IMG/VR virus record: IMGVR_UViG_3300009695_000010
Location: 1-42,168 of that record
DNA from: a virus
Direction: 5' to 3' (one strand)
DNA: 42,168 bases
The position numbers and the translations under genes were made by a program. The stretch's first letter is position 1; each line of letters opens with the position of its first letter. Shown here piece after piece: positions 2,266-40,773 of this stretch. The notes under the pieces are model-generated. The model saw only the letters and a program-made list of their open reading frames with translations, was not told the DNA's origin and ran no database searches.

Positions 2266-2294
2266 TTGACAAAGTAACAATTAAATAATAAAAT
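2266..2294 (+). promoter_or_regulatory. Promoter upstream of coiled-coil gene
   Basis: TTGACA at 2266-2271, a 17-bp spacer and TAAAAT at 2289-2294. A near copy of the 16-bp repeat begins at 2278, offset from its position in the other repeat-containing promoters. It would drive 2318-3897. Confidence 0.5.
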
Positions 2295-2317
2295 AATAAA
2301 GAGGATGTGTTAATAAA

Positions 2318-2953
2318 ATGAATGAGAAAATAGAATTATTAAAAGAATTAATTGAGAAATCTGAATTAACCGTACAACAAAAGATAAACAAAATCATCCA
2401 GACACTAATAAGAACAGAAGATCCAATTAAAGCTAGAATATTGAGTAATGAGATATTAGATGGTAAATTTGATAAGTTAGAAAATCAAAGTATTTTAAAT
2501 TTGGTAACAGCATTTAATGATAACGAATCAATAGTAGTAAGCAATCAAACAGAATACAATGATGTTAAAGAAGATACCCTATTTAATAAAAATGATTCAA
2601 ACGAAAACAAAGCAATCAAGACATTAGAGTATCAATTGAAAGTAATGCAATCTCAGATGGAATCCTTAGAATACAATAATAATAAAAAGATGAAAGAACT
2701 AGAAGAATTAAACAATAAACGAATAGACGAACTAACTAAATCAAATAATGAATTGTCTGGATTAAATAGTAGATTAGTTGCAAGATTAAGTTTAACTAAA
2801 AATTCTAAACTGATTGAAGTATCAGATGAAAGTATTAACGAATTATATATTAGAAACTTAGAAACAGCAGTAACTGAATATGAAGAAGCGTTTATCGTAA
2901 AAGGAATAGTTCCAAAGACTTATTACAAATTAAATAATAGAGAGGGAGAATAA
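2318..2953 (+). CDS. Coiled-coil protein, 211 aa
   Basis: A highly charged Glu/Lys/Asn-rich protein. Residues about 95-155 form a predicted coiled coil (heptad pattern around YNNNKKMKELEELNNKRIDE). The N-terminal 60 residues look like a helical bundle. No catalytic motif is visible. It ends 5 bp before the inactive recombinase-like gene at 2959, so the two probably act together, perhaps in partition, replication control or as a recombination accessory pair. Function not recognised. Confidence 0.6.
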   Translation: MNEKIELLKELIEKSELTVQQKINKIIQTLIRTEDPIKARILSNEILDGKFDKLENQSILNLVTAFNDNESIVVSNQTEYNDVKEDTLFNKNDSNENKAIKTLEYQLKVMQSQMESLEYNNNKKMKELEELNNKRIDELTKSNNELSGLNSRLVARLSLTKNSKLIEVSDESINELYIRNLETAVTEYEEAFIVKGIVPKTYYKLNNREGE

Positions 2954-2958
2954 AAATT

Positions 2959-3897
2959 ATGAGAACTCAAAAATATTCTAAATTATATATTACTATTTAT
3001 GACGAATTAAATAATAAGGGAAATGTTATTAAAAACATTCTAAAAACTGAAAAGGAATTAGATATTGAATTATTAGATTGGAAAGATGAACAGTTAGTTA
3101 TTTTCTTAAAGAAATTTGAATCAATATCTCCAGTAAGTTTAAGAAAAAATTTAACGATATTAAGAGAGTTTGCTAATTATATTTGTAAAGAAGAAAATCT
3201 TGAATGTCCTATATTTACATTAGAAGAATCTGTTTTTATGAGTTTGATTGATACAGATAAATTGTTATCCGTAACATTATCTTATGAACAGTTTCAGAAC
3301 ATCAGAGGACAGCTAGGAATGGCAGGTATAGGAGAAACAGTAAACTACAGAGATAAGCTTATTTTTGAACTCGCATGGTTTGGCGTTACTGAAGATGAAA
3401 TGAGAATGTTAAAAGAGTCTGATATAGAATATGTTGATAATAAAGGAATGGAAGTTGCTATATTAAATCTAAATACTGGTAAAACTGTAAGAATTGATGA
3501 TCCAGAAGTTATTGATGATATTAAAAAATGTATAGTAACAGATTCAATTACTAGAGTCGCTAAAGATGGCAGATTTAAAACTACTGGATACAGAGATTCA
3601 GAGTACCTACTAAGAGCTGGAAAATCAGGTGGAACATCTCCTAATTCATTCTTTGGTAAACCTGCTACAGCACTAAAAGGAGCTTTTGTTAAACAAGAAA
3701 TAACTTGTGATGGAATTAATGTCTTTGATTTGAGCTTAGACGATATTAGGAGGAGCAGACTGGTGCTGTTACTAAATAAAAAGAATGAAGAGTATTTTAA
3801 CTTTGAAACTGTTGCAGCAATATATAATCTTAAGACAATTTCTGCGATTAGATGGTACCGAGAAATAGCTGCAATGAAATATCCAGAGGTAAAATAA
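2959..3897 (+). CDS. Tyrosine recombinase-fold protein lacking catalytic residues
   Basis: The 312-residue protein has the two-domain outline of a phage integrase: a SAM-like N-terminal domain (LRKNLTILREFANYICKEE, about 60-80) and a C-terminal domain starting near YRDKLIFELAWFGVTEDEM. That segment aligns with the usual 'LLLATGLRxSEL' box, but the catalytic Arg position is Thr (GVT). The H-x-x-R box is represented by LDDIRRSRLVLL, without the His. No Tyr nucleophile in the usual GHxxxxxTxxYxH context is visible. It is therefore probably a DNA-binding or structural paralogue, not an active recombinase. It is co-transcribed with the coiled-coil gene. Confidence 0.6.
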   Translation: MRTQKYSKLYITIYDELNNKGNVIKNILKTEKELDIELLDWKDEQLVIFLKKFESISPVSLRKNLTILREFANYICKEENLECPIFTLEESVFMSLIDTDKLLSVTLSYEQFQNIRGQLGMAGIGETVNYRDKLIFELAWFGVTEDEMRMLKESDIEYVDNKGMEVAILNLNTGKTVRIDDPEVIDDIKKCIVTDSITRVAKDGRFKTTGYRDSEYLLRAGKSGGTSPNSFFGKPATALKGAFVKQEITCDGINVFDLSLDDIRRSRLVLLLNKKNEEYFNFETVAAIYNLKTISAIRWYREIAAMKYPEVK

Positions 3898-3906
3898 TGA
3901 AGCCTG

Positions 3907-3941
3907 GAACAACACTAATATTATTAAGTTTAGTGTTGTTC
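3907..3941 (+). terminator. Hairpin after inactive recombinase gene
   Basis: A 12-bp stem (GAACAACACTAA at 3907-3918 with TTAGTGTTGTTC at 3930-3941) and an 11-nt loop. The following bases are TTAGTCAGC, not a T-run, so termination strength is uncertain. It lies 10 bp after the stop codon. Confidence 0.6.
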
Positions 3942-3985
3942 TTAGTCAGCATCAACAATCAAATAATAATAAGGGATGGGGATAA

Positions 3986-4378
3986 ATGATGAAAGAATTT
4001 AATAATAAAGATTTTGTTAAAACTGAAAAATACGTAGCTATAACAGGAGACAATTTTGACTCAGATAGACAATTTGAAATAGAAGTTGATGGAGTACAAA
4101 TAACGTTATGTATGGATGAACAGAATAGGCTCATTCAGATACTCTCAGCCGATGGAGAAGTTATTAGTAGTAAGAATACCAATGTAGCTAAAAAGTGCCT
4201 ACAGAGAGTCGTTACAACGTCTAGAGAGGCTACATATACCGACAAGCAAGAAAGGTTCTGGTCGTTCTACCTAGATGATATAAGACCTAATTCAAAATGT
4301 CCTAAAGTAGATAATTCCACTATGTATGCGATTCAAGCTTTGGATTGGGAGACAATAAAGTTAGAATTAACCAAATGA
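3986..4378 (+). CDS. Hypothetical protein, about 130 aa
   Basis: Two adjacent ATG codons (3986, 3989) follow AAGGGATGGGG and either could be used. The product has a beta-rich N-terminal half (FEIEVDGVQITLCMDEQNRL) and a helical C-terminal part containing ERFWSFYLDDIRP. No family recognised. A near copy of the 16-bp repeat (3956-3971) sits just upstream of the RBS. It is the last gene before the promoter cluster at 4393-4545. Confidence 0.55.
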   Translation: MMKEFNNKDFVKTEKYVAITGDNFDSDRQFEIEVDGVQITLCMDEQNRLIQILSADGEVISSKNTNVAKKCLQRVVTTSREATYTDKQERFWSFYLDDIRPNSKCPKVDNSTMYAIQALDWETIKLELTK

Positions 4379-4392
4379 ATTATATCGGAATA

Positions 4393-4421
4393 TTGACAAT
4401 TAAATAATAAATTTGTAGAAT
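4393..4421 (+). promoter_or_regulatory. Repeat-spacer promoter (TTGACA-17-TAGAAT)
   Basis: -35 TTGACA at 4393-4398, 17-bp spacer ATTAAATAATAAATTTG, -10 TAGAAT at 4416-4421. The spacer is a copy of the dispersed repeat with one inserted A. It heads the run of small genes from 4581. Confidence 0.7.
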
Positions 4422-4487
4422 AAATAGTCAAGTAGGAAATTATTGTAAACATTATTATTATATTGTACCGATTGACTATAACAAATT
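4410..4487. promoter_or_regulatory. Interrupted inverted repeat in promoter cluster
   Basis: AATTTGT (4410-4416) and ATAGTCA (4424-4430) are complementary in inverted order to TGACTAT (4473-4479) and ACAAATT (4481-4487). It spans from the -10 of the first promoter to the -35 of the second, so it could be a paired operator or a leader-RNA stem. Confidence 0.35.
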
Positions 4488-4500
4488 TAGAATATATATT
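4472..4500 (+). promoter_or_regulatory. Second promoter (TTGACT-17-TATATT)
   Basis: -35 TTGACT at 4472-4477 and -10 TATATT at 4495-4500 with a 17-bp spacer. An extended -10 element, TGTTATAAT, follows at 4502-4510. Both would drive the small genes from 4581. Confidence 0.45.
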
Positions 4501-4536
4501 ATGTTATAATAAAATATAAAGTTTATCAGACGTGCA

Positions 4537-4545
4537 TGGTATAAT
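4537..4545 (+). promoter_or_regulatory. Extended -10 promoter TGGTATAAT
   Basis: A perfect TGn-TATAAT element lies 35 bp before the ATG at 4581, giving a short leader. No clear -35 box is seen, which is acceptable for extended -10 promoters. Confidence 0.45.
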
Positions 4546-4580
4546 AAAGAAAATAATTTATATGAAAGAAGGAATTAATA

Positions 4581-4760
4581 ATGGATCACACAATATTAGC
4601 AACATATTTTAATGGAGATAATTATAGTTTTGATTGGTTAGAAAATGATGAAGATACAGCAGAATGGTTAGATGAAAGTAAAGACAAGTATACTCAGATA
4701 GAAATTATTAAAGTTAATGTTATGGAAGTAATATATCAGTCTAAAGATATGGAGGAATAA
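4581..4760 (+). CDS. Hypothetical acidic protein, 59 aa
   Basis: ATG at 4581 follows GAAAGAAGGAATT. The product begins MDHTILATYFNGDNYSF and is rich in Asp and Glu (DWLENDEDTAEWLDESKD); no motif is recognised. Its last codons (ATGGAGGAATAA) supply the ribosome binding site of the next gene 1 bp downstream, implying tight coupling. It is the first gene after the promoter cluster. Confidence 0.6.
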   Translation: MDHTILATYFNGDNYSFDWLENDEDTAEWLDESKDKYTQIEIIKVNVMEVIYQSKDMEE

Positions 4761-4761
4761 T

Positions 4762-4953: not shown

Positions 4954-4994
4954 AAGTAGTTTTCAAGTTAAATTATAAGGAGGTAAATAATATA

Positions 4995-5327: not shown

Positions 5328-5343
5328 AAATGAGGAGGACTAA

Positions 5344-7176: not shown

Positions 7177-7206
7177 TTGACAAATGAATAATACTTATGG
7201 TAAACT
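7177..7206 (+). promoter_or_regulatory. Variant repeat-spacer promoter (TTGACA-18-TAAACT)
   Basis: TTGACA at 7177-7182, spacer AATGAATAATACTTATGG and TAAACT at 7201-7206. The spacer is a diverged copy of the dispersed repeat. A second near copy (7216-7231) follows directly, before the RBS of the 7248 gene. Confidence 0.55.
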
Positions 7207-7428: not shown

Positions 7429-8148
7429 ATGGAAAACGATCAATTACAAATATTTAATAATGAGGAGTTCGGACAGATAAGAACTATTACAGAAAATGGA
7501 GACACTTGGTTTTTAGGAAAGGACATTGCTGGAACTTTAGCATATAAAGATACATCAGATGCATTAAAGAAACATGTTGATGAAGAGGATAAAATGGGTA
7601 GGCAAATCGCCGACTCATTAGGAAGACAGCAAAACACTATCTTTATAAACGAGAGTGGAATGTATAGTTTGATATTTAAGAGCAAACAACCTAAAGCTAA
7701 AGAATTTAAAAGATGGGTAACTTCAGAAGTATTACCATCTATTCGTAAAACCGGTGGATATGTAGCTCCCAGCATTGCAAGCAAAGACACTTATATATTA
7801 GACTTAGCCAAGTCAATGCAATTAACTAATCAAGTTGTACAAGGAATATTGACATCAGTAACTAAGATGGAAGAGTTTGTTAAAGATAGTCTTAATGCAA
7901 AAGATATTCAAATAGATAGAGCATCAGAGTTAATTGGATTAAGAAGTAAGAACACAATGATGTTATCTGGTGCATTAAAAGAGAAATTAGAAGACCTCAC
8001 AGGGGCATATGTTTCTGCTACGTCTGAATTATATAAGAAGATTAAGAAATTAGTATTTAAAGAGTTTCATGTATTTAAATGGGAAGAAATTGCAATAGGA
8101 AAATATAATAGAGTTTATGCATTTATAGATTCTATAGAAGAAATATAA
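7429..8148 (+). CDS. Phage antirepressor, BRO-N domain
   Basis: The 239-residue protein has a BRO-N domain over residues about 5-115: FNNEEFGQIRTITENGDTWF, GKDIAGTLAYKDTSDALKKH, the FINESGMYSLIFKSKQP box and the RWVTSEVLPSIRKTGGY box, all characteristic. The C-terminal part (about 150-239) is helical, with an ORF6C-like outline. Proteins of this type in temperate phages bind or displace repressors to promote lytic growth. It lies downstream of its own promoter at 7177. Confidence 0.92.
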   Translation: MENDQLQIFNNEEFGQIRTITENGDTWFLGKDIAGTLAYKDTSDALKKHVDEEDKMGRQIADSLGRQQNTIFINESGMYSLIFKSKQPKAKEFKRWVTSEVLPSIRKTGGYVAPSIASKDTYILDLAKSMQLTNQVVQGILTSVTKMEEFVKDSLNAKDIQIDRASELIGLRSKNTMMLSGALKEKLEDLTGAYVSATSELYKKIKKLVFKEFHVFKWEEIAIGKYNRVYAFIDSIEEI

Positions 8149-8164
8149 CAATTAAATAATAATT
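8149..8164 (+). repeat. 16-bp dispersed repeat, exact copy
   Basis: CAATTAAATAATAATT starts at the base after the antirepressor stop codon and runs into the RBS of the next gene. Confidence 0.8.
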
Positions 8165-8400: not shown

Positions 8401-8416
8401 CAACTAAATAATAATT
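8401..8416 (+). repeat. 16-bp dispersed repeat, exact copy
   Basis: CAACTAAATAATAATT begins at the base after the stop codon of the 8179 gene and is followed by GAGGAGG, the RBS of the 8433 gene. The bases before it read TTAACA, one change from a -35 box, but no -10 follows. Confidence 0.8.
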
Positions 8417-9370: not shown

Positions 9371-9532
9371 ATGTTAAATAGTGAGTTAATTACAAAGTTA
9401 GAAGAATTAGATCCAAATGCAGAGATTATTGTTTGGGAAGGCTATGATGCTGGATGTACTACTAGAGAATTTCAAATTAGTTCAGGTATATTCTTTGATA
9501 CAAATCAAAAATATTATTTATTGGAGGCATAG
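9371..9532 (+). CDS. Small hypothetical protein, 53 aa
   Basis: ATG at 9371 follows AAGGAGGAAATGGT. The product begins MLNSELITKLEELDPNAEI and continues with IVWEGYDAGCTTREFQI. It is an acidic phage protein of unknown role and stops 1 bp before the ligase start, supplying the ligase RBS (GGAGG in TTATTGGAGGCATAG). Confidence 0.6.
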   Translation: MLNSELITKLEELDPNAEIIVWEGYDAGCTTREFQISSGIFFDTNQKYYLLEA

Positions 9533-9533
9533 T

Positions 9534-11483
9534 ATGAATAGATTAATTGAATTAACAGACTTATTAAAACAAGCCTCGGCAGCCTATTATAATTCTGATA
9601 CTAGTTTTTACACTGACAAACAGTTTGACGCCCTCCTTGACGAGCTGAAGGCACTAGAAACATCATCAGGAGTAGTATTATCAGGTAGTCCAACAAGTAA
9701 TGTAGGATATGAAGTCAAGTCAAAACTAACTAAAGTTTCTCATTCAATTCCACTCCGTTCACTTGGTAAAACTAAAACAATTAAAGATTTAGAATACTTT
9801 CAAGGCAGTCAAGATTGTGAGTTAATGCTTAAGGGGGATGGACTTACAAATGAAATTATATATGACAATGGAATATTAATTCAGGGTAGCACCAGAGGAA
9901 ATGGAGAGATAGGAGAAGATATAACTCATAATGTAAAAACTTACAACAAAATACCTTTAACTATTGATTTCAAAGGATATTTAAAAGTTGTAGGTGAGGC
10001 CGTAATATTTGATGAGGATTTTACAATAGTGAATGAAAAAGCTGGAGGAAAGTATTCTAATTCAAGAAATCTAGTAGCAGGAAGTGTGAGACAATTAGAT
10101 TCTAAAATATGTGCTGCTAGAAATGTAAACTTTATGGCTTTTGGAATATTAGAAATGAAAATTGATGGAGTAGACAAAAACTATAATAAGTTTCATAAGC
10201 AATTAGAATTTTTAGGTGACTTAGGTTTTTATGTTGTACCTCATGTTATGACTGAGAAGAAAGATGATTTAGAAGTTATTATAGATAGTATGAAAGAATT
10301 AGCAAAACAAATAGGAGTTCCTATTGATGGAATGGTATTGAAGTTTAATGATATTTCTTATGGAGAAAGTTTAGGATCAACTTCACATCATCCATTAAAT
10401 GCTATTGCTTTTAAGTTTTATGATGAAGAATCTGAAACTGAATATATTACTACAGAATGGAATACTTCACGTACAGGACAGTTAAACCCAGTAGCTATAT
10501 TTCAACCTACAGAAATAGAATCTTCTATAGTGGAAAGAGCTACACTTCATAATGTAGATTATTTTAGAGAGTTACAATTAGGTAAAGGAGATATTATCAC
10601 ATTGATAAAAGCTAATCAAGTTATTCCTAAAGTAACAGGGAACTTAACGAGAAGTAATACTGAATTAATTCCTGAAGAATGTCCGGTATGTAATAGTAAA
10701 ACAGAAGTAAGATTATTAAAAACTGCTCATGTATTATTTTGCACAAATGAAGATTGTCCATCTAAAAAAGTAGCTCAGTTTGAACATTTTTGTAGCAGAG
10801 ATGCTATGAATATTTTAGGACTTGGAGAGGCAATAATCGAAACATTTATAAATATGGGGCTCCTAAGTAATTTGCCAGATATTTATAGATTGCAAGATTA
10901 TAGATTTAGGATAATTGCTCTTGAAGGATTTGGAGAGAAATCATATAACAAGATAATTCAAGCTGTTGAAAATTCAAGAGTATGTAAGTTAGAAAATTTT
11001 ATATATGCTTTAGGAATCCCAAATGTTGGTAAAGGTACTGCAAAAGATTTGTGTAATTATTTTAAAGGCTCTTTTAATAATTTTATAGAGGCTATAGAAA
11101 GCAATTTTGATTTTTCTAATATAAAAGATATAGGAGAAATTACAAGTGAATCTATCTATTTATGGTTTACTGAAGATGTTAAAGATGATCTCTTTGAGTT
11201 AGTTCAGTATATTGAATTCAGCAAAGAGAAAATTGCAGAAGTAAACACTAAAGGAATATTTGCAGATAAGAAGATTTATTGTACCGGAAGTTTTGCTTCA
11301 CATAAGAAAGACGAATTAAAAGTTATTGTAGAAAGTTTAGGAGGAGAGTTTGCTTCAGGATACGCTAAGTCTCTTGATTATTTAGTAGTTGGTTCCTTAA
11401 AAGGTAGTGGTAAAGTTGCAAAGGCCGAGAAAGATGGAGTTAAAGTATTAACCGAGGAACAATTTTTAGAAATGATTAAATAA
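9534..11483 (+). CDS. ligA: NAD-dependent DNA ligase
   Basis: The 649-residue protein is full length for LigA. ATG at 9534 is chosen because it follows GGAGG and the protein then begins at the usual Ia domain (LTDLLKQASAAYYN). The adenylation motif is KGDG at 100-103 (the KxDG lysine), later segments include STRGNGEIGEDITHN and the OB-domain box ATLHN. A four-Cys zinc finger (CPVC ... CTNEDC), helix-hairpin-helix repeats (ALEGFGEKSYNKII, LGIPNVGKGTA) and a C-terminal BRCT domain (KIYCTGSFASHKKDELK) follow. It seals nicks using NAD+ and would join Okazaki fragments of the phage replisome. Confidence 0.96.
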   Translation: MNRLIELTDLLKQASAAYYNSDTSFYTDKQFDALLDELKALETSSGVVLSGSPTSNVGYEVKSKLTKVSHSIPLRSLGKTKTIKDLEYFQGSQDCELMLKGDGLTNEIIYDNGILIQGSTRGNGEIGEDITHNVKTYNKIPLTIDFKGYLKVVGEAVIFDEDFTIVNEKAGGKYSNSRNLVAGSVRQLDSKICAARNVNFMAFGILEMKIDGVDKNYNKFHKQLEFLGDLGFYVVPHVMTEKKDDLEVIIDSMKELAKQIGVPIDGMVLKFNDISYGESLGSTSHHPLNAIAFKFYDEESETEYITTEWNTSRTGQLNPVAIFQPTEIESSIVERATLHNVDYFRELQLGKGDIITLIKANQVIPKVTGNLTRSNTELIPEECPVCNSKTEVRLLKTAHVLFCTNEDCPSKKVAQFEHFCSRDAMNILGLGEAIIETFINMGLLSNLPDIYRLQDYRFRIIALEGFGEKSYNKIIQAVENSRVCKLENFIYALGIPNVGKGTAKDLCNYFKGSFNNFIEAIESNFDFSNIKDIGEITSESIYLWFTEDVKDDLFELVQYIEFSKEKIAEVNTKGIFADKKIYCTGSFASHKKDELKVIVESLGGEFASGYAKSLDYLVVGSLKGSGKVAKAEKDGVKVLTEEQFLEMIK

Positions 11484-12322: not shown

Positions 12323-12351
12323 TTGACAATTAAATGATAATTTAGTATTCT
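12323..12351 (+). promoter_or_regulatory. Repeat-spacer promoter (TTGACA-17-TATTCT)
   Basis: TTGACA at 12323-12328 with spacer ATTAAATGATAATTTAG; the -10 at 12346-12351 is TATTCT, weaker than the others. The spacer is the dispersed repeat with one change (G for A). It would drive 12395-14334. Confidence 0.6.
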
Positions 12352-14334: not shown

Positions 14335-14350
14335 CAATTGAATAATAATT
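14335..14350 (+). repeat. 16-bp dispersed repeat, exact copy
   Basis: CAATTGAATAATAATT begins right after the stop codon of the SH3-like protein gene and just before the hairpin at 14355. Confidence 0.8.
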
Positions 14351-15285: not shown

Positions 15286-15314
15286 TTGACAACTAAACAA
15301 TAATTTAGTATTAT
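15286..15314 (+). promoter_or_regulatory. Repeat-spacer promoter (TTGACA-17-TATTAT), replication block
   Basis: TTGACA at 15286-15291, spacer ACTAAACAATAATTTAG containing an exact dispersed repeat (15290-15305), and TATTAT at 15309-15314. It has a leader of about 130 nt and would drive the ssDNA-binding candidate and ATPase genes. Confidence 0.75.
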
Positions 15315-16694: not shown

Positions 16695-16710
16695 CAATTA
16701 AATAATAATT
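16695..16710 (+). repeat. 16-bp dispersed repeat, exact copy
   Basis: CAATTAAATAATAATT lies in the gap between the ssDNA-binding candidate and the ATPase gene, preceded by ACGA and not by a full -35 box. Confidence 0.8.
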
Positions 16711-19997: not shown

Positions 19998-20555
19998 ATG
20001 AGTAAAAAACTTAATGAATATAATTTAAGTGGTGAATATGGGATAGGATATACCTCAAAAGGAACTGAATTTTATTTTGATATAGAAGATTATAATAAAA
20101 TTAAAAATTTTACGTGGTATATTGGCAAAGATGGGTACGTAGTTGAAAAATATAAAAAGATAATGACTAGAATGCATAGATTAGTTATGAAACTAAATAA
20201 AGATAATCCTATTAAGGTGGATCATATTGATAGAAAACGAAATGATAACAGAAAAATGAATCTAAGATTTGCAACATCTAGTAAAAATGGCATGAATAAA
20301 GGATTACAAAGTAACAATAGCACTGGATTTGTTGGAGTTTCATGGGATAAAAAGAATAATAAGTGGTATACTGCAATTAAAATAAATCAAAAAGTTGTTT
20401 TCATAGGAAGATTTAGTGATATAGATATTGCTATAACAGAAAGACTTAAAGCAGAAATAAAATACTTTGGAAAAGAATTTGCACCACAAAGAAATTTATT
20501 TGAAGAATATGGAATTGCTCAAGAGAAACAATTAAACAATAATTTAGTTTGCTAA
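19998..20555 (+). CDS. HNH homing endonuclease with AP2 domain
   Basis: ATG at 19998 follows AAAGGAG; upstream in-frame codons overlap the helicase end and are unlikely. The 185-residue protein starts NEYNLSGEYGIGYTSKGTEF. The HNH box is MHRLVMKL ... VDHIDRKRNDNRKMNLR, followed by a C-terminal AP2-type DNA-binding segment (STGFVGVSWDKKNNKWY). It inserts between helicase and primase genes, a typical location for freestanding homing endonucleases. The C-terminal QLNNN is encoded by an exact copy of the dispersed repeat. It is the same family as 30814. Confidence 0.9.
   Translation: MSKKLNEYNLSGEYGIGYTSKGTEFYFDIEDYNKIKNFTWYIGKDGYVVEKYKKIMTRMHRLVMKLNKDNPIKVDHIDRKRNDNRKMNLRFATSSKNGMNKGLQSNNSTGFVGVSWDKKNNKWYTAIKINQKVVFIGRFSDIDIAITERLKAEIKYFGKEFAPQRNLFEEYGIAQEKQLNNNLVC
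20529..20544 (+). repeat. 16-bp dispersed repeat inside HNH gene 3' end
   Basis: CAATTAAACAATAATT encodes Gln-Leu-Asn-Asn-Asn of the HNH protein. This is the only one of the three frames of the repeat without a stop codon. Confidence 0.8.
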
Positions 20556-25519: not shown

Positions 25520-25548
25520 TTGACAACTAAACAATAACTTGGTAGAAT
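25520..25548 (+). promoter_or_regulatory. Repeat-spacer promoter (TTGACA-17-TAGAAT)
   Basis: TTGACA at 25520-25525, spacer ACTAAACAATAACTTGG (a near copy of the repeat) and TAGAAT at 25543-25548. It heads the 25589 gene and those that follow. Confidence 0.75.
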
Positions 25549-26876: not shown

Positions 26877-26892
26877 CAATTAAACAATAATT
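26877..26892 (+). repeat. 16-bp dispersed repeat, exact copy
   Basis: CAATTAAACAATAATT lies alone in the 210-bp gap before the C5 methyltransferase gene, with no adjacent -10 box. Confidence 0.8.
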
Positions 26893-26987: not shown

Positions 26988-27003
26988 CAACTAAATAATA
27001 ATT
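26988..27003 (+). repeat. 16-bp dispersed repeat, exact copy
   Basis: CAACTAAATAATAATT lies 7 bp before the RBS of the C5 methyltransferase, so the same gap holds two exact copies. Confidence 0.8.
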
Positions 27004-27024: not shown

Positions 27025-28269
27025 ATAAAAAAATTAAGAGTACGTACATTATTTAGTGGAATTGGTGCTCCAGAAATTGCATTAAGGGATGCTAAAATTC
27101 CTTATGAACTAGTTGATTTCTGTGAGTTTGATAAATATGCAGTTAAGAGTTATTGTGCAGTACATAATGAATTAGAAAGCAAGAATTTGGGAGATGTAAC
27201 AAAAGTTGATGGTAAAGAACTAGAATACGCAGATCTTATGGTATGGGGGTTTCCTTGTACAGATATTTCGGTAGCTGGACTTGTTAAAGGATTCATAGAT
27301 GAAGAAGGAAATGTAACTAGATCAGGATTATATTATGAAGGACTTAGAATACTCAGAGAAACTATGCCAAAATATTCTATAATTGAAAATGTAAAGAATT
27401 TAGTAGGAAAGAAATTTAAAGAACAGTTTGAGTCTATGTTAGAAGATATAAAAGGATTAGGCTATAATAATTATTGGAAAGTTCTCAATGCTAAAGATTT
27501 TGGTATCCCTCAAAATAGAGAAAGAGTATTTATAATTTCTATTAGAGAAGATGTTGATACTGGTAAGTTTGAATTCCCTAAAGCATTCGATAATGGATTA
27601 AGATTAAAAGATTTCTTAGAAAATAATATAGAACCTAAATATTATATATCTCAAGAGAAAACTGATAAATTAATTAGTCAATTAAAAGATAAAAATAATT
27701 TAATGCTAGATATGTGTCAATCTAAAAGAGAGGGACATCCAAGGGAATACACAGATTATTCGCCTACTCTAAGTGCAAGGGATTATAAGGAACCAAGATT
27801 AATAAATGAAGGGAGTCAAACTGAACCTAAAATAATTGCTTCAAGAGGAAGATATATTGATGGCAAAATAGAGCAACAATTTGAGCCTAGAAAAGATGAT
27901 ATAACTAACACTTTAACCACTGTCCAAAAAGATAATTTGTTATTAGAAAACAAATGTGTTCAGCTTGGGAATTTGGAACAACCAGGATATCATGAATCAT
28001 GCAATAGAGTATATTCCCCAGAAGGTATCGCAAGAACTCTTATGGGTGGCGGAGGAAATTTAAATGATAAAGCTGGACAGTATCTAATTGATTATAAAGT
28101 TAGAAGGTTAATACCACTTGAATGTTGGAAACTTATGGGATTTACAAATGAAGACTTTCAGAAAGCAAAAGATGTTGGGATTTCAGATAGTCAATTATAT
28201 AAACAAGCAGGAAATTCTATTGTAACAAATGTTTTGAAAGAAATATTTAAGAACTTATTTGACAATTAA
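27025..28269 (+). CDS. C5-cytosine DNA methyltransferase
   Basis: With an ATA start at 27025 (8 nt after GAGGAGG) the protein is 414 residues and begins M-KKLRVRTLFSGIGAPEIA. No ATG, GTG or TTG lies in frame between the RBS and motif I; the first such codon is at 27187, inside the fold. Motifs: I FSGIG (10-14), IV GFPCTDIS with catalytic Cys78, VI ENVKNL, VIII QNRERVF, X KQAGNSIV near the C-terminus, with a target-recognition region between. No restriction enzyme gene is adjacent, so it probably protects phage DNA or marks it. Confidence 0.9.
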   Translation: MKKLRVRTLFSGIGAPEIALRDAKIPYELVDFCEFDKYAVKSYCAVHNELESKNLGDVTKVDGKELEYADLMVWGFPCTDISVAGLVKGFIDEEGNVTRSGLYYEGLRILRETMPKYSIIENVKNLVGKKFKEQFESMLEDIKGLGYNNYWKVLNAKDFGIPQNRERVFIISIREDVDTGKFEFPKAFDNGLRLKDFLENNIEPKYYISQEKTDKLISQLKDKNNLMLDMCQSKREGHPREYTDYSPTLSARDYKEPRLINEGSQTEPKIIASRGRYIDGKIEQQFEPRKDDITNTLTTVQKDNLLLENKCVQLGNLEQPGYHESCNRVYSPEGIARTLMGGGGNLNDKAGQYLIDYKVRRLIPLECWKLMGFTNEDFQKAKDVGISDSQLYKQAGNSIVTNVLKEIFKNLFDN

Positions 28270-28278
28270 ATAATAATT
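28263..28278 (+). repeat. 16-bp dispersed repeat, exact copy, overlapping gene end
   Basis: CAATTAAATAATAATT covers the last codons and stop of the methyltransferase. The bases before complete a TTGACA at 28259-28264, but the -10 position (AAATTC, 28282-28287) is poor. Confidence 0.75.
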
Positions 28279-30629: not shown

Positions 30630-30645
30630 CAATTGAATAATAATT
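30630..30645 (+). repeat. 16-bp dispersed repeat, exact copy
   Basis: CAATTGAATAATAATT begins at the base after the stop codon of the 30216 gene and precedes the RBS (AAGGAG) of the 30662 gene. Confidence 0.8.
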
Positions 30646-30814: not shown

Positions 30815-31767
30815 TGGGGAAAGTTAAAGATGATTTGACAGGACAAAGGTTTGGTAAATTAACGGTCATAAATAAAGTAGAAGGTTATATAGCTACAAAT
30901 GGAAGTAAACCGACTATGTTACATTGTGAATGCGATTGTGGCAAAGAAAAAGATATCCTTAAAGATAGTTTAACTTCAAACAAAACTAAGAGTTGTGGGT
31001 GTTTAAAAAAAGAGAAAGGAGATATAGATAGGAAAAGTTTAATTGGGATGAAATTTGGTAGATTGACTGTTCTATATCAAACAGATTATTATTTCTTGCC
31101 TTCTGGAAAAAGGGTTGCTCAGTGGTATTGTCAATGTGATTGTAATTTAGATAATCCAAACTTTGCTACTGCTTCTAGTGGTAGTTTACAAAGTGGAAAT
31201 ACAGCATCGTGTGGTTGTTTTGCTAAAGAACAGATATATAAGGCACATAAAAAATATAATTCTTATAATTTAAATGGAGATTGTGGAATAGGGCATACCT
31301 TTAAAGATGAACCATTTTTATTTGACTTAGAAGACTTCAATAAAATTAAAGAATATTGTTGGTGTTATGATAAGGATGGATATGTTATTACAAATAGTAA
31401 CAATAAAACTATATGGATGCATAGGTTAATAATGAGTCCTAAAGAAAATGAGGATGTTGATCATATATACCATGTACATCATGATAATAGGAAAAATGAA
31501 TTAAGGTCAATTACTCGTTCTCAAAACCAAATGAATAAAGTTCTTTCAATTCATAATACAACTGGAATAAAAGGAGTACGATTTACAGGTAATCATAAAC
31601 CTTGGAAAGCGTCTATAACAATAGATGGTAAATGTGTACAAAAGGCTTTTAAAAATAGAGAAGATGCAATAGTTCATAGAATATATCTTGAAGAGAAATA
31701 TCATGGTGAATATGCACTTAAAGAAAAAGAACAACTGAACAATAATTTACAGGAGGTGACTATTTGA
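30814..31767 (+). CDS. Modular HNH homing endonuclease with two Cys-rich DNA-binding repeats
   Basis: The 317-residue protein has two N-terminal copies of the 'LTGQRFGKLTV ... CDCG ... SCGC' module (about 8-67 and 74-142; LTGQRFGKLTVINK and LIGMKFGRLTVLYQ), each with four Cys. A unit related to the 19998 endonuclease follows (SYNLNGDCGIGHTFKDEPF, MHRLIM, VDHIYHVHHDNRKNELR, TTGIKGVRF). This modular structure is typical of phage homing endonucleases. It is coupled to the preceding gene and overlaps the recJ-like gene start by 4 bp. Confidence 0.88.
   Translation: MGKVKDDLTGQRFGKLTVINKVEGYIATNGSKPTMLHCECDCGKEKDILKDSLTSNKTKSCGCLKKEKGDIDRKSLIGMKFGRLTVLYQTDYYFLPSGKRVAQWYCQCDCNLDNPNFATASSGSLQSGNTASCGCFAKEQIYKAHKKYNSYNLNGDCGIGHTFKDEPFLFDLEDFNKIKEYCWCYDKDGYVITNSNNKTIWMHRLIMSPKENEDVDHIYHVHHDNRKNELRSITRSQNQMNKVLSIHNTTGIKGVRFTGNHKPWKASITIDGKCVQKAFKNREDAIVHRIYLEEKYHGEYALKEKEQLNNNLQEVTI
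31732..31747 (+). repeat. 16-bp dispersed repeat inside HNH gene 3' end
   Basis: CAACTGAACAATAATT encodes Gln-Leu-Asn-Asn-Asn near the C-terminus of the modular HNH protein and lies just before the RBS (AGGAGGTGA) of the recJ-like gene. Confidence 0.8.
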
Positions 31768-34292: not shown

Positions 34293-34321
34293 TTGACAAC
34301 TAAATAATAATTTGGTAAGAT
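34293..34321 (+). promoter_or_regulatory. Repeat-spacer promoter (TTGACA-17-TAAGAT)
   Basis: TTGACA at 34293-34298 and TAAGAT at 34316-34321 around spacer ACTAAATAATAATTTGG, which contains an exact repeat copy (34297-34312). It starts 4 bp after the adenine methyltransferase stop and drives the nrd region. Confidence 0.75.
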
Positions 34322-34877: not shown

Positions 34878-34881
34878 TATT

Positions 34882-35178: not shown

Positions 35179-38100
35179 ATGCAAATAGTTAAAAGAGATG
35201 GTAGAGAGATAGGGTTTCAAAAGGGTAAAATTGTTGAAGCAATAGTAAAATCTATGAATGAAACTAAGAAAGGAATAGATGTAGACTTAGCTAATAAAAT
35301 TTCAGAGTCTATATCTAAAATAAATAAAGAAAACTTATCTGTAGAAGATATTCAAGATTTAGTTGAACAAAAACTCATGAAGTCCAATCGTAAAGATGTA
35401 GCTAAACAATATATATCTTATAGAAGTGAAAGAACTAGAATGAGAGAAATTAATAATGAAATAAATACAAAGATAAAAAAAATAGTTGCCTGTTCAGATG
35501 TTCAAAATGCTAATGCAAATGTAGATGAACATTCTTTTGGTGGAAGAAAATTTGAAAGTGCTGGAGTAATTCATAAGAAAATAGGATTAGAAATGATGAG
35601 ACCAGAAACGGCATTAGCTCATAAAGAAAATAGGGTTTATCAACATGATTTAGATTCTTATGACATAGGAATGCATAATTGTTTGTTTTTAGACATGGAG
35701 AGAGTTTTGAATAATGGATTTGAAACTAGGAATGGAGATGTAAGACCTGCAAGTTCATATAGTACGGCTTGTCAACTAGTTGCAGTAGCTTTCCAGGTAC
35801 AAAGTCAAGTGCAATTTGGAGGTTGTGGATCTGCTCACATTGATTATGATTTAAAACCATTTGTTAAGAAATCATTTATAAAGCACTTTAAGGATGGACT
35901 TAAATATATAGACGAATTAGAACAATATGAGATTGATAATATAATAGAAACAAATGATGTACAATTATCTAATTTAGAATTAGAACAAAACTTTAAAAAA
36001 TCATTTAAATATGCCTTAGAAAAAACAGATAAGGAAGGATTACAAGCATCTCAAGGATTATATCATAATCTGAATACATTAGAATCAAGAGCTGGAAGCC
36101 AAGTACCTTTTACTTCAATTAACTTTGGAAGAGATAAAACTCCAGAAGGTAGAAAAGTTACAGAATGGATGTTGAAGTCATCAATTGATGGTATAGGTAA
36201 GAATCACAGAACAAGTATATTCCCTATATCTATATTCCAATATAAAAAAGGTGAAAATGATAAAGTAGGAACTCCTAATTACGATTTAAAAAAACTAGCG
36301 ATAAAGTCACTTACTAAGAGAATATATCCTAATATAGTTAACTGTGACTACACTCAAAATATAGAAGATATAAATAGTCCAGATACATCTATGGCAACAA
36401 TGGGGTGTGTAGATGGAGAAGAGATAATTACTTATAAATATAAAGACTTATTGTTTATAGAAAGTTTTAAAAGAATGTGGGATAGACTATCTAAAGATTT
36501 TGAGGTTAAAGAACAACAATTAAATAATAATTTTTATATAGATTTAAATAACGTATTGATTTACGACACGAATAAAGGATTTGTAGACACAAAGAGGATA
36601 ATCAAAAATCAAGATAAAGGAGATTGGAACAGAGTTAAATTCTCGAATGGAAGAAGTTTATTAGCTACATCAGATCATCCTTTGCCTATTGAAAAAAAGG
36701 GAAGAGTTTTTGTTAAAGATTTAATAGTTGGAGACAAAATACAAATTAATCAGAATCAATATAGTGAAACTAATATAGAATATTCTCAAGATAAAGCATG
36801 GTTACTTGGATTTCTATTATGCGATGGTTGTTATGATATGCAACTAAGTTCTTCAATTGCTTTGACCGGTGAGGATGACATAGAGGAAAATTATAGAAGA
36901 ATATTTAAAGAAATTTATGACTTAAATGTAGAAACAGTTGTTTGGAATAGGGGCGCAAGAGGAGATTATAAAGAATTAAAAGTTAGAACCGGAAACTATA
37001 AAGCAGTTGAATTAGAGCTGTTAGAAGTGTTTGGAGGAAAGCAAAAAATATATAGACAAATACCAAACGAAGTTTTTTCATGGAATAGAGAATCTAAATT
37101 GTCATTTCTAGCAGGAATGATTGATGCAGATGGATATATTAACAGCACTGGACATAGTGGAACAATAGTACAAATAGGTAGTACAAATAAAGAATTAGCA
37201 TTGCAGACTGCTGCATTATCCCAAAGTTTAGGAATACCTACAAAAACTTACTTAAACCATTATACTTCCAAAGATAAAAGTAAAATAAGATATAGAGTTG
37301 AGTTTTCTGCGACAATAGAATTATTAAATTATATGGCTTGTAATAAAAAAATCGACTGTTTTACTAGAGAGGCAAACACAACAAAAACTAATGTTGCAGT
37401 AGTTGTATCAGTAGAAATGTTAGGTAATTTAAATAAATATAGTTATGACGTTACTACTGAAAGTGATTTCTTTGAAGTTAGTGGAATATGCAACCATAAT
37501 TGTAGAACGATGATAGGAGCAGATAGACATGGATTAGGATACTCTAAAATAGGAAGAGGTAATGTAGCTCCTGTAACTATGGATTTACCTAAGATTGGTA
37601 TTAAACATGGTATATGTCTTGGAGAAAGAACTGAAGCTGATTTAGAAGGATTTTGGAAAGAATTTGATGAAGTATTGGGAATAGCATCTCAAAGTTTAGT
37701 TGATAGATTCTATCATATTTGTAGTCAAAATTATAGGTCAGCACCATTTATGTATACAAATGGAACAATAGCAGATTTCGATAAAGTAATAGATAAAGGA
37801 ATTTATGAAGCTATGAGACATGGAACTTTAGCTATGGGATACATTGGAATTGCAGAAATGTGTCAAGCTTTATTTGGTAAAAACCACGCAGAGGATAAAG
37901 AAGTTCATAAGTTTGCCTTAAGTGTAGTAAAATATATCTCTGAATACACTAAGAAGGTAAGTGAGGTATATAATTTAAACTTTAGTTGTTATGCTTCTCC
38001 AGCAGAAAATACCTGTAAAACAATGATGCAAGGACTACAAAAGGAATTTGGAATGATTGAGAATGTTACCTCAAGAGCTTATTTAACTAATTCACATCAT

Positions 38101-38487: not shown

Positions 38488-38489
38488 TT

Positions 38490-38993
38490 ATGTATATCAG
38501 TGGAATACAATATGAAAGTATTGTAGATGGAGAAGGATTAAGACTAACAATGTTTGTAAGTGGATGTAAATGGAATTGTGAAGGTTGTCATAACCCTAAA
38601 ACTCATAGCTTTGTTAATGGTAAATGTTTTGATATAAAGTTACAAAATCATATTATAGATTATATTCAAAACAATCCTATGATAAAAGGTATTACATTAT
38701 CTGGTGGAGATCCAATGTTCTCAGCAAAAGAATTAATTGAATTTGTAAAAAAGTTAAAAATCAAAATACCTTCTATTAATATATGGTGTTATTCAGGATT
38801 TACATTTGAAGAAATATTAGAAGATTCTGATGAAAAGTTTGAATTATTAAAGCTATGTGATATTTTAGTCGATGGGAAGTTTAATATCGACAAAAGAAAT
38901 GTAACATTATCATATAGAGGAAGTGACAATCAAAGATTAGTTTTAGTTCAAGAAAGTTTAAAACAAAACGAATGTATTTTATATAACAATTAA
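38490..38993 (+). CDS. nrdG: Anaerobic ribonucleotide reductase activating protein NrdG
   Basis: The 167-residue radical-SAM protein has the iron-sulfur motif C-x3-C-x2-C in SGCKWNCEGCHNP (Cys26, Cys30, Cys33), then GITLSGGDPMFSAKEL, matching NrdG. It installs the glycyl radical on NrdD using S-adenosylmethionine. The ATG is 2 bp after the nrdD stop, so the pair is coupled. The stop codon falls inside an exact copy of the dispersed repeat. Confidence 0.94.
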   Translation: MYISGIQYESIVDGEGLRLTMFVSGCKWNCEGCHNPKTHSFVNGKCFDIKLQNHIIDYIQNNPMIKGITLSGGDPMFSAKELIEFVKKLKIKIPSINIWCYSGFTFEEILEDSDEKFELLKLCDILVDGKFNIDKRNVTLSYRGSDNQRLVLVQESLKQNECILYNN

Positions 38994-39002
38994 ACAATAA
39001 TT
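38987..39002 (+). repeat. 16-bp dispersed repeat, exact copy
   Basis: CAATTAAACAATAATT covers the nrdG stop codon. A small GGCA/TGCC hairpin and an RBS follow before the dUTPase gene. Confidence 0.8.
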
Positions 39003-39043
39003 TAAGGCTGGCATCCTAAACTGCCGAAAAGGAGAAAAGGATT

Positions 39044-39529
39044 ATGGGAAAAGTATATTTTGCAAAAGTAAATAAATATGCAACAATTCCTTCCAAAGCA
39101 GATGAGGATATGGGATATGATATTTATGCTTGTTTTGATCAAGTTGAAATAGCAATACAACCTGGAGAAATTAAACTGATTCCTACAGGTATTGCCTCTG
39201 CATGTAATGAAGATTACGGATTTATACTTAAAGAAAGAGGTTCTACAGGAACTAAGGGAATGTCACAACGATGTGGTGTTATAGATAGTGGATATAGAAA
39301 CGAGTGGTTTGTGCCTATAAATAACACAAGTAATAAAGTAATTATTATAACAAAAAATGAAGATAGAGCAATGGCAGATTATGAACAATATTATTCTTAT
39401 TCTAAAGCTATATGTCAAGCATTGTTAATACCAGTTCCCAAGACAGAAATTATTGAGTTAACTGCAACAGAACTTAAAAGAATACCATCTAAAAGAGGTA
39501 TGGGACATCTCGGATCAAGTGGAAAGTAG
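39044..39529 (+). CDS. dut: dUTPase
   Basis: The 161-residue trimeric dUTPase has all five motifs: 1 DMGYDIYA (22-29), 2 ERGSTGTKGM, 3 GVIDSGYRNEW, 4 SKAICQALLIPV and 5 KRGMGHLGSSGK. Motif 2 has a variant RGST in place of the usual RSS, seen in some phage enzymes. It hydrolyses dUTP to dUMP, keeping uracil out of phage DNA and feeding dTMP synthesis. Confidence 0.93.
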   Translation: MGKVYFAKVNKYATIPSKADEDMGYDIYACFDQVEIAIQPGEIKLIPTGIASACNEDYGFILKERGSTGTKGMSQRCGVIDSGYRNEWFVPINNTSNKVIIITKNEDRAMADYEQYYSYSKAICQALLIPVPKTEIIELTATELKRIPSKRGMGHLGSSGK

Positions 39530-39538
39530 AGGAGAAAT

Positions 39539-40165
39539 ATGGGTGGAATAGGGAGATTATTAAGAATTAGACAATGTAGTGTTTGTGGAAAAGACATTGA
39601 AATACACCATAAAATAAGAATGGAAAGTACTACTATTTATTGTAGCAGAAAATGTTATAAAGAAAAACTAATCGAAAAGCCAAAAGCAAATGTTAAATGT
39701 GCCTATTGCAATAAAGAGTTTTATTTAAAGCCTAGTCATTTGAGTAAAACAGATACGCATTGTTGTTCAGAAAAATGTTTGAGGAATCTAAGAAAAACAA
39801 CTTATTCAGGTAAAAATAATCCTCAATATGGATTAAAAGGTATACTCAATGATAGTTGGAAAAGTGATGTTAAAATAACCCATTATGGCTATAGAAAAAT
39901 TAGAGCACTAGATCATCCTTTTAAAGACATTGATGATTTTGTATTTGAGCATAGATTAATCGCAGAAAAATATCTGCTAACAAGTGAAAACAGTATAAAG
40001 GTAGGAGATAAAAGTTATTTAAAAGACACATATGTTGTTCATCATGAAGATTTTAATAGATTGAATAACAAAGTGAATAATTTGAAGGTCATGACTAAAT
40101 CAGATCACATAAAATGGCATTGGCAAATAAGAGAACAATGTAAAATATATAAATCAGTAATATAA
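39539..40165 (+). CDS. HNH endonuclease with zinc-binding N-terminus
   Basis: Starts ATG 39539, 3 nt after GAGGAG-like GTAGAGGAGAAAT. Residues 14-83 hold Cys pairs (QCSVCGKDIEIH, YCSRKCYKE, KCAYCNKEF, CCSEKCLRN) forming zinc modules. The C-terminal HNH part has FVFEHRLIAEKYL and VVHHEDFNRLNNKVNNLKVM. Probably a homing endonuclease inserted between dUTPase and the Gam-like gene. Confidence 0.85.
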   Translation: MGGIGRLLRIRQCSVCGKDIEIHHKIRMESTTIYCSRKCYKEKLIEKPKANVKCAYCNKEFYLKPSHLSKTDTHCCSEKCLRNLRKTTYSGKNNPQYGLKGILNDSWKSDVKITHYGYRKIRALDHPFKDIDDFVFEHRLIAEKYLLTSENSIKVGDKSYLKDTYVVHHEDFNRLNNKVNNLKVMTKSDHIKWHWQIREQCKIYKSVI

Positions 40166-40191
40166 AATAAAAATTAGGAGGTCATATATAA

Positions 40192-40752
40192 ATGGAAAGT
40201 AATAATTTAGAAGAATTGTTTGCATCATTATTTGGATCAGAAGAGGAACAGGAGGAGGCTAGTCAAAATTCATTTGATAGCGAATCAGGGATAGATGAAA
40301 GTATACAAAAAGTTAAAGATTTAGATTTAGAAATAGAGCGTTATAAATCATTATATAATGAAAAGTTAGAGAAATTAAAATATGATTTAGACAATAAAAC
40401 ATCCAAACTTAATAATCAAAAGGAATGGTTGTTATACAATCTTAAAAATTCGGTAATGGCTGCTCCAGATAAAAAAGATTTAAAGTCTATGTATAAAAAG
40501 GTATATTTCGCTGGTGAGGTTCAAGTTAAGAAATCAGTTGTTCAATTTATTGTTCCTGAATTTTCAGAGGAAGAAATTAATAAGAATTTCTCAGATTATA
40601 AAAAAGTTAAAACTGTTACTACACTCGATTGGAAATTATTGAAGTCGCATATCAAGATATTAAATGGCAACATAGTTAATGAAAAAACTGGTGAATTTCT
40701 TACAGATAAAATATCAACAGAAAAAACTCCAGAAACCGTAACTGTAAAATAG
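40192..40752 (+). CDS. Gam-like host-nuclease inhibitor / DNA-end protein
   Basis: The 186-residue protein has an acidic N-terminus, a long coiled coil (about 38-90) and a C-terminal segment YKKVYFAGEVQVKKSVVQFI followed by TLDWKLLKSHIKILNG and a TPETVTVK end. This pattern resembles Gam-like phage proteins, which cap dsDNA ends or inhibit RecBCD/AddAB nucleases. The match is by outline, not by exact motif. Confidence 0.6.
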   Translation: MESNNLEELFASLFGSEEEQEEASQNSFDSESGIDESIQKVKDLDLEIERYKSLYNEKLEKLKYDLDNKTSKLNNQKEWLLYNLKNSVMAAPDKKDLKSMYKKVYFAGEVQVKKSVVQFIVPEFSEEEINKNFSDYKKVKTVTTLDWKLLKSHIKILNGNIVNEKTGEFLTDKISTEKTPETVTVK

Positions 40753-40757
40753 CTTAA

Positions 40758-40773
40758 CAATTAAACAATAATT
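40758..40773 (+). repeat. 16-bp dispersed repeat, exact copy
   Basis: CAATTAAACAATAATT lies 5 bp after the Gam-like gene stop and directly abuts the terminator at 40774. Confidence 0.8.

What the first reader, a model, noticed from the sequence alone, without database searches (positions are those of the whole stretch)
2278..40773. Dispersed, one-directional 16-bp repeat resembling a stoperator system
CAAYTRAAYAATAATT occurs exactly at 8149, 8401, 14335, 15290, 16695, 20529, 26877, 26988, 28263, 30630, 31732, 34297, 36517, 38987 and 40758. Near copies lie at 2278, 3956, 4397, 7216, 7396, 12327, 12593, 14775, 24943, 25524, 25957 and 34387. All are in the + orientation; I saw no reverse copy. 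Most lie in short gaps between a stop codon and an RBS, and some are promoter spacers. Cluster A mycobacteriophages have the same layout: asymmetric repressor sites at promoters and throughout the genome, oriented with transcription. Other explanations are a partition site, an antitermination signal or a translation enhancer.
Basis: partly seen in the sequence, partly recalled or inferred. Interest (0 to 1): 0.8.

Follow-up and report, generated by a model that had tools for sequence, protein, structure and literature searches.

The report
Stoperator-like sites of an SPβ-type repressor
A bacterial virus carries dozens of copies of one short DNA word, all pointing the way its genes are read, and they are most likely docking sites for a repressor, descended from a recombinase, that keeps the virus silent inside its host.

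Summary
The repeat is real: 15 exact copies of CAAYTRAAYAATAATT, all on +, none expected. The window is an identical piece of a 125,827-bp phage record, G001. G001 holds 82 matrix sites: 49, all +, on the + gene arm; 33, all -, on the - gene arm. Twelve of 82 lie inside ORFs, against 74% of AT-matched 16-mers; 17 of 82 are built into promoters, and many others lie between stop codon and ribosome site. Two related records have the same layout with their own variant words.

The likeliest binder is window 2959-3897, a diverged relative of MrpR/YopR, the SPβ master repressor, a catalytically dead tyrosine recombinase that binds the SPBRE repeat (PMC10516654). PHROG 5830, YopR's family, is its only PHROG hit; Pfam's MrpR cut-off is not reached. 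Nine other MrpR phages scanned also carry phage-specific, mostly co-oriented repeats; a prediction for one further phage failed.

It works like a mycobacteriophage stoperator system, but by descent probably belongs with MrpR/SPBRE. Binding and blocking of transcription are inferred, not shown.

The parts
8149..8164 (+). exact site directly after a TAA stop, before a ribosome site
8401..8416 (+). exact site directly after a TAA stop, before a ribosome site
14335..14350 (+). exact site directly after a TAA stop
15286..15314 (+). exact site (15290-15305) inside promoter TTGACA-N17-TATTAT
16695..16710 (+). exact site between two genes; the orthologous junction in G006 also has a site, in G006's own word
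20529..20544 (+). exact site inside an ORF, in the frame QLNNN
26877..26892 (+). exact site between genes
26988..27003 (+). exact site between genes
28263..28278 (+). exact site holding the stop codon of the gene before it
30630..30645 (+). exact site directly after a TAA stop, before a ribosome site
31732..31747 (+). exact site near the end of an ORF, in the frame QLNNN
34293..34321 (+). exact site (34297-34312) inside promoter TTGACA-N17-TAAGAT
36517..36532 (+). exact site inside the 1107-aa ORF, in the frame QLNNN
38987..39002 (+). exact site holding the stop codon of the gene before it
40758..40773 (+). exact site between two genes
4393..4421 (+). near site (4397) inside promoter TTGACA-N17-TAGAAT
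7177..7206 (+). near site (7181) inside promoter TTGACA-N18-TAAACT
12323..12351 (+). near site (12327) inside promoter TTGACA-N17-TATTCT
25520..25548 (+). near site (25524) inside promoter TTGACA-N17-TAGAAT
2266..2294 (+). promoter-like TTGACA-N17-TAAAAT holding a weak site (2278), before the gene pair that ends with the repressor candidate; likely autoregulation (inferred)
2959..3897 (+). 312-aa MrpR/YopR-like protein, candidate repressor
   Evidence: PHROG 5830 E 1e-9; profile comparison with 8 MrpR E 2.4e-10; reciprocal profile hits; against: Pfam below cut-off, no PDB sequence hit to MrpR
1323..2207 (+). tyrosine recombinase, in the place of SPβ yopP
   Evidence: gene order
2318..2953 (+). 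211-aa protein in the place of yopQ, but no match to yopQ's DndB family
7429..8148 (+). antirepressor-family protein (PHROG 463, E 2.6e-52); SPβ has one (yoqD) downstream of yopR

Best explanation
The repeats are single, asymmetric binding sites for the phage's own lysogeny repressor, most likely the MrpR/YopR-type protein at 2959-3897. At about a fifth of the sites the word runs from the -35 hexamer into the promoter spacer, where the bound protein would block initiation. Most of the rest lie in gaps between genes, all facing the oncoming RNA polymerase the same way, and would act as roadblocks to elongation, as stoperators do. Together they would silence both arms of the prophage and give immunity against phages that use the same word. 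Shown here: sites, orientation, placement, a different word in each relative, and co-occurrence of full-length MrpR-family genes with such repeats. Inferred: binding by this protein, blocking of elongation, immunity.
For: Number and orientation: 82 sites in G001, 49 of 49 + on the + arm and 33 of 33 - on the - arm; at cut-off 15, 80 sites against a mean of 0.5 in 10 shuffles. Placement: 12 of 82 inside ORFs against 10,486 of 14,216 AT-matched 16-mers; 17 of 82 in promoters, TATAAT-like words peaking at one offset (12 of 82). Own words in G002 (32 sites) and G006 (72 sites, one misoriented) with little cross-recognition; 3 shared junctions of 21 (p = 0.042). Candidate repressor: PHROG 5830 only, 267-column profile match to MrpR, best three hits of its profile among 4,725 ORFs of ten MrpR phages are MrpR genes; 37% identical between G001 and G006 where polymerase is 82%. 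SPβ: the 11 strongest SPBRE matches all run along their gene. Nine other MrpR phages have 42 to 86 sites, mostly along the genes, also without chosen seeds.
Against: The membership of 2959-3897 rests on weak sequence signals: Pfam MrpR_N_CB 14.8 bits against a cut-off of 27 and no match to the C-terminal domain; no PDB sequence match to MrpR; poor match to YopR alone (hhalign probability 3.8%); the MrpR profile also finds ordinary recombinases at similar E-values, and PHROG 5830 rings in 8 of 14 control genomes. The structure model is poor (mean pLDDT 51). G002 has the repeat but no MrpR gene in its 58-kb fragment. phiCDIF1296T, with a partial PHROG 5830 match, lacks a large repeat family although I predicted one. 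Lytic Lactococcus phages WRP3 and 949 have 47 and 39 co-oriented intergenic copies of a promoter word, so intergenic co-orientation alone does not prove repressor sites. No binding or expression data.
Confidence: 0.7

Rival explanations
1. Same sites and much the same role, but another phage protein binds them, above all the 191-aa RepL-like winged-helix protein (G001 60236-60811).
For: Present in the three records with the repeat (61% identity) and not found in the three polymerase relatives without it; weak RepL and HTH domain matches. Unlike the MrpR-like gene it is seen in G002.
Against: No RepL match in 9 of the 10 named MrpR phages, which have comparable repeats, and only a weak one in the tenth. 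It is similarly conserved (61%) in phages whose words differ, whereas the MrpR-like protein is strongly diverged.
Confidence: 0.12
2. The word is part of a promoter class (site of a phage activator or sigma factor) that is switched on during infection; copies outside good promoters are weak or remnant promoters.
For: 31 of 82 sites start inside a TTGACA-like hexamer and 17 have a -10 at the right distance. In FADO 30 of 62 sites and in vB_BcoS-136 a second family with 53 of 58 sites embed promoters.
Against: 65 of 82 G001 sites lack a -10 in the expected place, and many lie between a stop codon and a ribosome site with no room for a promoter.
Confidence: 0.08
3. The word acts in RNA: translation enhancer, antitermination or RNA-stability element in front of genes.
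For: Strictly on the coding strand; a ribosome-site-like sequence within 30 bases downstream in 45 of 82.
Against: In 17 of 82 sites the word lies between -35 and -10 and would not be in the transcript of that promoter; some copies lie deep inside ORFs, such as 36517.
Confidence: 0.05
4. The word marks replication or packaging direction, like FtsK-guiding or partition sites; transcription merely runs the same way.
For: The polarity converges on one region and diverges in another; G001 encodes an FtsK/SpoIIIE-type protein and an actin-like partition protein.
Against: Avoidance of ORFs, embedding in promoters and abutment on stop codons have no evident role in guiding. The + gene block at 117-122 kb on the - arm has no sites, so it cannot decide.
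Confidence: 0.03

Closest known systems
SPβ master repressor MrpR (YopR) and the SPβ repeated element SPBRE (PMC10516654: abstract, sections 27 and 36 and passages seen)
   Same: Dispersed asymmetric AT-rich sites, often at promoters; the 11 strongest in SPβ run along their gene and several lie between -35 and -10; the repressor is a monomeric, catalytically dead tyrosine recombinase; recombinase, a middle gene and the repressor stand in a row, as in 6 of the 10 named phages by their annotation.
   Different: Ten ChAP-seq peaks in SPβ against 82 sites here, most outside promoters; another word; the middle gene is not DndB-like; the repressor is very diverged.
phi3T SroF, the MrpR homologue of phage phi3T (PDB 9rd5 and 9rgl titles; the sro-operon paper is recalled only)
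   Same: Same protein family; phi3T has a repeat of its own with about 40 copies, mostly along the genes.
   Different: Word and middle gene differ; which DNA SroF was solved with could not be read here.
Cluster A mycobacteriophage repressor and stoperators, L5 and Bxb1 kin (PMC9283540 and PMC6550527, passages seen)
   Same: Asymmetric sites at promoters and in short intergenic spaces, oriented with transcription, a similar but not identical motif in each genome; the repressor binds as a monomer.
   Different: More than twenty 13-bp sites in L5 against 82 here; the Cluster A repressor uses an HTH and a second DNA-binding domain, not a recombinase-type protein; in Cluster A the block is shown to depend on orientation, here it is not tested.
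One-directional intergenic repeats of phages T1 and Stevie (PMC4319613, one passage seen)
   Same: Asymmetric, predominantly intergenic, one direction relative to transcription.
   Different: In lytic phages; role unknown according to that paper.

Membership tests
MrpR/YopR repressor family | sequence homology to MrpR over both domains | tested here: inconclusive
   For: only PHROG hit is 5830 (E 1e-9), hhalign to 8 MrpR E 2.4e-10 over 267 columns, reciprocal profile hits. Against: Pfam N-domain 14.8 bits under the cut-off of 27, no C-domain match; poor match to YopR alone; no PDB hit.
MrpR/YopR repressor family | tyrosine-recombinase fold | tested here: inconclusive
   Model mean pLDDT 51; Foldseek lists Cre (E 2.5e-4), YopR (0.024), SroF (0.028) and MrpR (0.23), TM about 0.25.
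MrpR/YopR repressor family | catalytic residues lost | tested here: met
   By eye only: FGVTEDEM stands where the active recombinase next door has TGLRLTEL, and LSLDDIRRS where it has HVLRHS (sequences, alignment).
MrpR/YopR repressor family | gene order recombinase, middle gene, repressor | tested here: met
   Window 1323-2207, 2318-2953, 2959-3897 and the same order in G006; the middle gene is not the SPβ type.
MrpR/YopR repressor family | binds the dispersed repeat and keeps the prophage silent | not testable with these tools
   needs binding and expression assays
SPBRE-type element | dispersed, asymmetric, co-oriented repeat found at promoters | tested here: met
   SPβ itself
SPBRE-type element | same sequence as the SPBRE | not tested
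   G001 was not scanned with the SPBRE pattern; the two consensus words differ by eye
Cluster A stoperator system | asymmetric sites at promoters and in intergenic spaces, oriented with transcription | tested here: met
Cluster A stoperator system | repressor homologous to the L5/Bxb1 repressor | not tested
   No direct comparison made; the candidate's only PHROG hit is the YopR family.
Cluster A stoperator system | orientation-dependent block of elongation | not testable with these tools
   needs a reporter assay

The most novel reading that the evidence does not exclude
Stoperator-type silencing arose a second time, in large temperate phages of Firmicutes, with catalytically dead tyrosine recombinases as monomeric repressors. 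The SPβ SPBRE, with about ten promoter sites, would be the small end of it; most relatives scanned, and this clade, carry about 40 to 90 oriented sites that block elongation along the whole prophage, and each lineage has its own word and hence its own immunity group.
Probability: 0.45. Interest if true: 0.8.

Novelty: new variant of a known kind. Interest (0 to 1): 0.62.

Why it matters
Kohm et al. (PMC10516654, section 36) ask what governs the DNA specificity of MrpR. A set of MrpR relatives, each paired with dozens of copies of its own word, makes that directly testable. If the non-promoter sites stop RNA polymerase, stoperators are not a speciality of actinobacterial phages but a convergent way to keep large prophages silent, and could explain immunity groups among SPβ-like phages. 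In the held papers I found no account of many co-oriented MrpR-linked copies outside promoters (search listings; passages); the phi3T sro-operon paper, which may overlap, is not held.

Tried and rejected
Peptide-level reading (QLNNN): the word reads QLNNN or ELNNN in four ORFs (window 12593, 20529, 31732, 36517), but its other two + frames contain stop codons, so this follows from the word itself. Rejected.

RepL-like 191-aa protein as binder: a perfect presence/absence pattern in six records, not in the wider set. Kept as a rival.

More relatives of the repressor: viral contigs gave only G001 and G006, genome contigs none, the named phages none for the window protein. A search with a protein that I take for the capsid protein (no family search run) found no host genome. 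The host is not known. The structure model was too poor to decide the fold.

Failed prediction: phiCDIF1296T should have had a large repeat family (written, before the scan); only 8 sites, 7 along and 1 against the genes, were found. Its PHROG 5830 match covers positions 108-292 of 318 only.

Controls: WRP3 and 949 gave co-oriented extended -10 promoter words (47 sites, 37 along and 10 against; 39 sites, 33 and 6). SPO1's most intergenic family had 22 sites (7 in ORFs, 15 along and 7 against). G004 and G007 gave ribosome-site-like or mainly coding words (largest 44 sites, 30 in ORFs; and 30 sites, 25 in ORFs). In the G005 fragment no seed qualified. G004 has a short local PHROG 5830 match and was counted as without MrpR. 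In some MrpR phages many sites are in ORFs (phi3T 17 of 39, KKP_3916 21 of 49, Sundance 24 of 64).

Limits: matrices were trained on the genomes they scan. The 82-site set used cut-off 13, for which no shuffle was run; at 15 there are 80 sites against 0.5. Other settings gave 89 sites, 84 along and 5 against. ORFs are mechanical. The SPβ motif was seeded from the ten published target promoters, so its promoter location is circular. Seeds were picked by me; one search picked them by rule. The MrpR alignment used 8 of 10 (vB_BcoS-136 cut at my fetch end, phi36 gene split). Read short: E3 140,000 of 141,298, KKP_3916 120,000 of 120,131, vB_BcoS-136 160,000 of 160,590, G005 60,000 of 61,117.
Full report
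WHAT WAS CLAIMED AND WHAT IS THERE. The word CAAYTRAAYAATAATT occurs 15 times in the window, all on +, with none expected; with up to two mismatches 35 occur against 2.55 expected, 33 of them on +. The window is base for base positions 10075-52242 of an IMG/VR record of 125,827 bp, G001. This made the strand test possible. A matrix built from the word finds 82 sites in G001. The 49 between 0.7 and 56.3 kb, where genes run +, are all +; the 33 between 68.2 and 125.0 kb, where most genes run -, are all -. The + gene block at 117-122 kb has no site, so it tests nothing. At cut-off 15 there are 80 sites against a mean of 0.5 in 10 dinucleotide shuffles. The pattern read backwards gives no match with up to one mismatch in nine records. 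Other settings gave 89 sites, 84 along and 5 against the genes.

PLACEMENT. Only 12 of 82 sites lie wholly inside an ORF, while 10,486 of 14,216 equally AT-rich 16-mers do; G002 and G006 give 4 of 32 and 12 of 72. Thirty-one of 82 sites start inside a TTGACA-like hexamer and 17 of these also have a -10 at the right distance; TATAAT-like words peak at one offset, 12 of 82. Of the others, many start directly after a stop codon or contain it, with the next ribosome site a few bases on, which leaves no room for a promoter. The word itself holds stop codons in two of its three + frames, so it fits at gene ends and reads QLNNN when it lies inside a gene.

RELATIVES CHANGE THE WORD BUT KEEP THE LAYOUT. 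Two records whose DNA polymerase is 84% (G002, 58 kb) and 82% (G006, 122 kb) identical to the window's have words of their own, about ACAATTMAATAATAATATT and ACAAWTCAAAWATAATAT. They have 32 sites (20 +, then 12 -) and 72 sites (20 + on the + arm, 51 - on the - arm, one misoriented at 32588). At cut-off 20 G001's matrix finds 9 sites in G002 and none in G006; G002's finds 3 in G001; G006's finds none in either. Of 21 colinear gene junctions in G001 and G006, both have a site at 3, G001 alone at 5, G006 alone at none, neither at 13 (one-sided p = 0.042). The records G004, G005 and G007 (polymerase 52 to 60%) show no such family. A change of the word throughout a genome is what a change of binding protein would force.

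THE CANDIDATE BINDER. Gene 2959-3897 is 37% identical between G001 and G006, where polymerase is 82%. Its single PHROG match at E up to 1 is 5830 (E 1e-9), the family that holds SPβ YopR (E 4e-117); the recombinases next to it, in the window, G006 and SPβ, hit phrog_1 and phrog_216 instead. A two-sequence profile aligns with eight MrpR proteins over 267 columns (E 2.4e-10, a one-against-one value, 15% identity). Against 4,725 ORFs of ten MrpR phages its three best hits are the MrpR genes of vB_BcoS-136, Perkons and E3 (E 4e-5 to 5e-4); the other MrpR genes are not significant. In reverse the MrpR profile ranks the window protein first of 2,563 ORFs (7e-8) and G006's second, but ordinary recombinases follow at 2e-6 and weaker. 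Results against: Pfam MrpR_N_CB 14.8 bits (cut-off 27) and no C-domain match, a poor match to YopR alone, no PDB sequence hit to MrpR, PHROG 5830 matches in 8 of 14 control genomes, a poor model. The gene stands two places after a recombinase gene, as in 6 of 10 named MrpR phages by their annotation. MrpR is a monomeric protein with the recombinase fold, has lost catalysis, and binds the SPBRE at ten ChAP-seq peaks (PMC10516654; abstract, sections 27 and 36 and passages seen).

THE WIDER PATTERN. In SPβ the 11 strongest SPBRE matches all run along their gene. In nine other MrpR phages, scans with seeds that I chose gave 42 to 86 sites, with 33 to 77 along and 3 to 18 against the genes. With seeds picked by rule the top motif gave: phi3T 39, E3 94, KKP_3916 49, Perkons 59, Sundance 64, vB_BcoS-136 39, phi36 83, Staphylococcus SPbeta-like 55, FADO 62, SPβ 18, G001 89, G006 79, G002 41. 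Controls without MrpR were less clear-cut than hoped: WRP3 and 949 have co-oriented promoter words, and SPO1 a 22-site family, though none like the non-promoter family here. phiCDIF1296T went against a written prediction. G002 has the repeat but no MrpR gene in its fragment. So the link holds for the full-length MrpR genes scanned and is unproven beyond.

MECHANISM. Best reading: a lysogeny repressor of MrpR type binds single oriented sites. At promoters it blocks initiation; between genes it blocks the approaching polymerase, which would explain why the sites face one way and lie where the coding cost is least. In Cluster A phages reversing the site abolishes the block (PMC9283540, passage); I found no such test for an MrpR phage. 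A weak site lies in the promoter-like sequence before the gene pair that ends with the repressor candidate (window 2266-2294); in G006 the site at that place is inverted. An antirepressor-family gene lies downstream (7429-8148), as yoqD does in SPβ.

KNOWN OR NEW. It works like a stoperator system and by descent is probably of the MrpR/SPBRE kind. New here, as far as the held papers show, are the scale (82 sites against ten peaks in SPβ), the non-promoter majority, the strict orientation on two arms and the spread over the MrpR phages scanned. The paper most likely to overlap, on the sro operon of phi3T and SPβ (recalled), is not held; PDB entries of phi3T SroF with DNA and with an antirepressor exist.

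Noticed in passing
window 64-465 (3' part of the gene) and 535-678; whole in G001 9430-10539 and 10609-10752: A PemK/MazF domain (Pfam E 9e-20) joined to a TPR-like C-terminal part (very weak Pfam signal), followed at once by a 47-aa ORF with ribosome site and signal-peptide-like start: looks like an arbitrium-type receptor and peptide, in the place of aimR-aimP in SPβ. G006 lacks it; one partial hit among the named phages.
   Followed up: partly
G001 115055-116267: Four sites within about 330 bases upstream of a 282-aa gene (PHROG 9501, unknown function), two of them in good promoters: the densest cluster seen by eye.
   Followed up: no
G001 117325-118956, 122776-123636, 60236-60811: FtsK/SpoIIIE-type protein, actin-like partition protein and RepL-like protein: the prophage may live as a plasmid.
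   Followed up: no
window 20529, 31732, 36517: Exact sites lie inside what I read by eye as two HNH-type genes and an intein in an anaerobic ribonucleotide reductase (no family search run): the site seems to have been gained in inserted elements.
   Followed up: no
G006 32588: The only misoriented G006 site lies before the middle gene of the repressor pair, in a promoter-like stretch.
   Followed up: partly
Sundance (W05), FADO (W07), KKP_3916 (W03) records: Second, palindromic dispersed words: AATACATGTATT (42 sites), CGTTGTCAACG (19) and CGCTTGACAAGCG (18).
   Followed up: no
phiCDIF1296T record (W13): Eight copies of a long word, about TCANCTCCGTACTTAACAAAAAATAGA, 7 along the genes and 1 in an ORF.
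   Followed up: no
G006, WRP3 and 949 records: GTTATCCACA-type words, like DnaA boxes (recalled): 8, 15 and 10 sites.
   Followed up: no
L017 (G008) and L010 (G002): G008 matches polymerase residues 1-28 and G002 residues 30-1109: probably neighbouring pieces of one phage.
   Followed up: no
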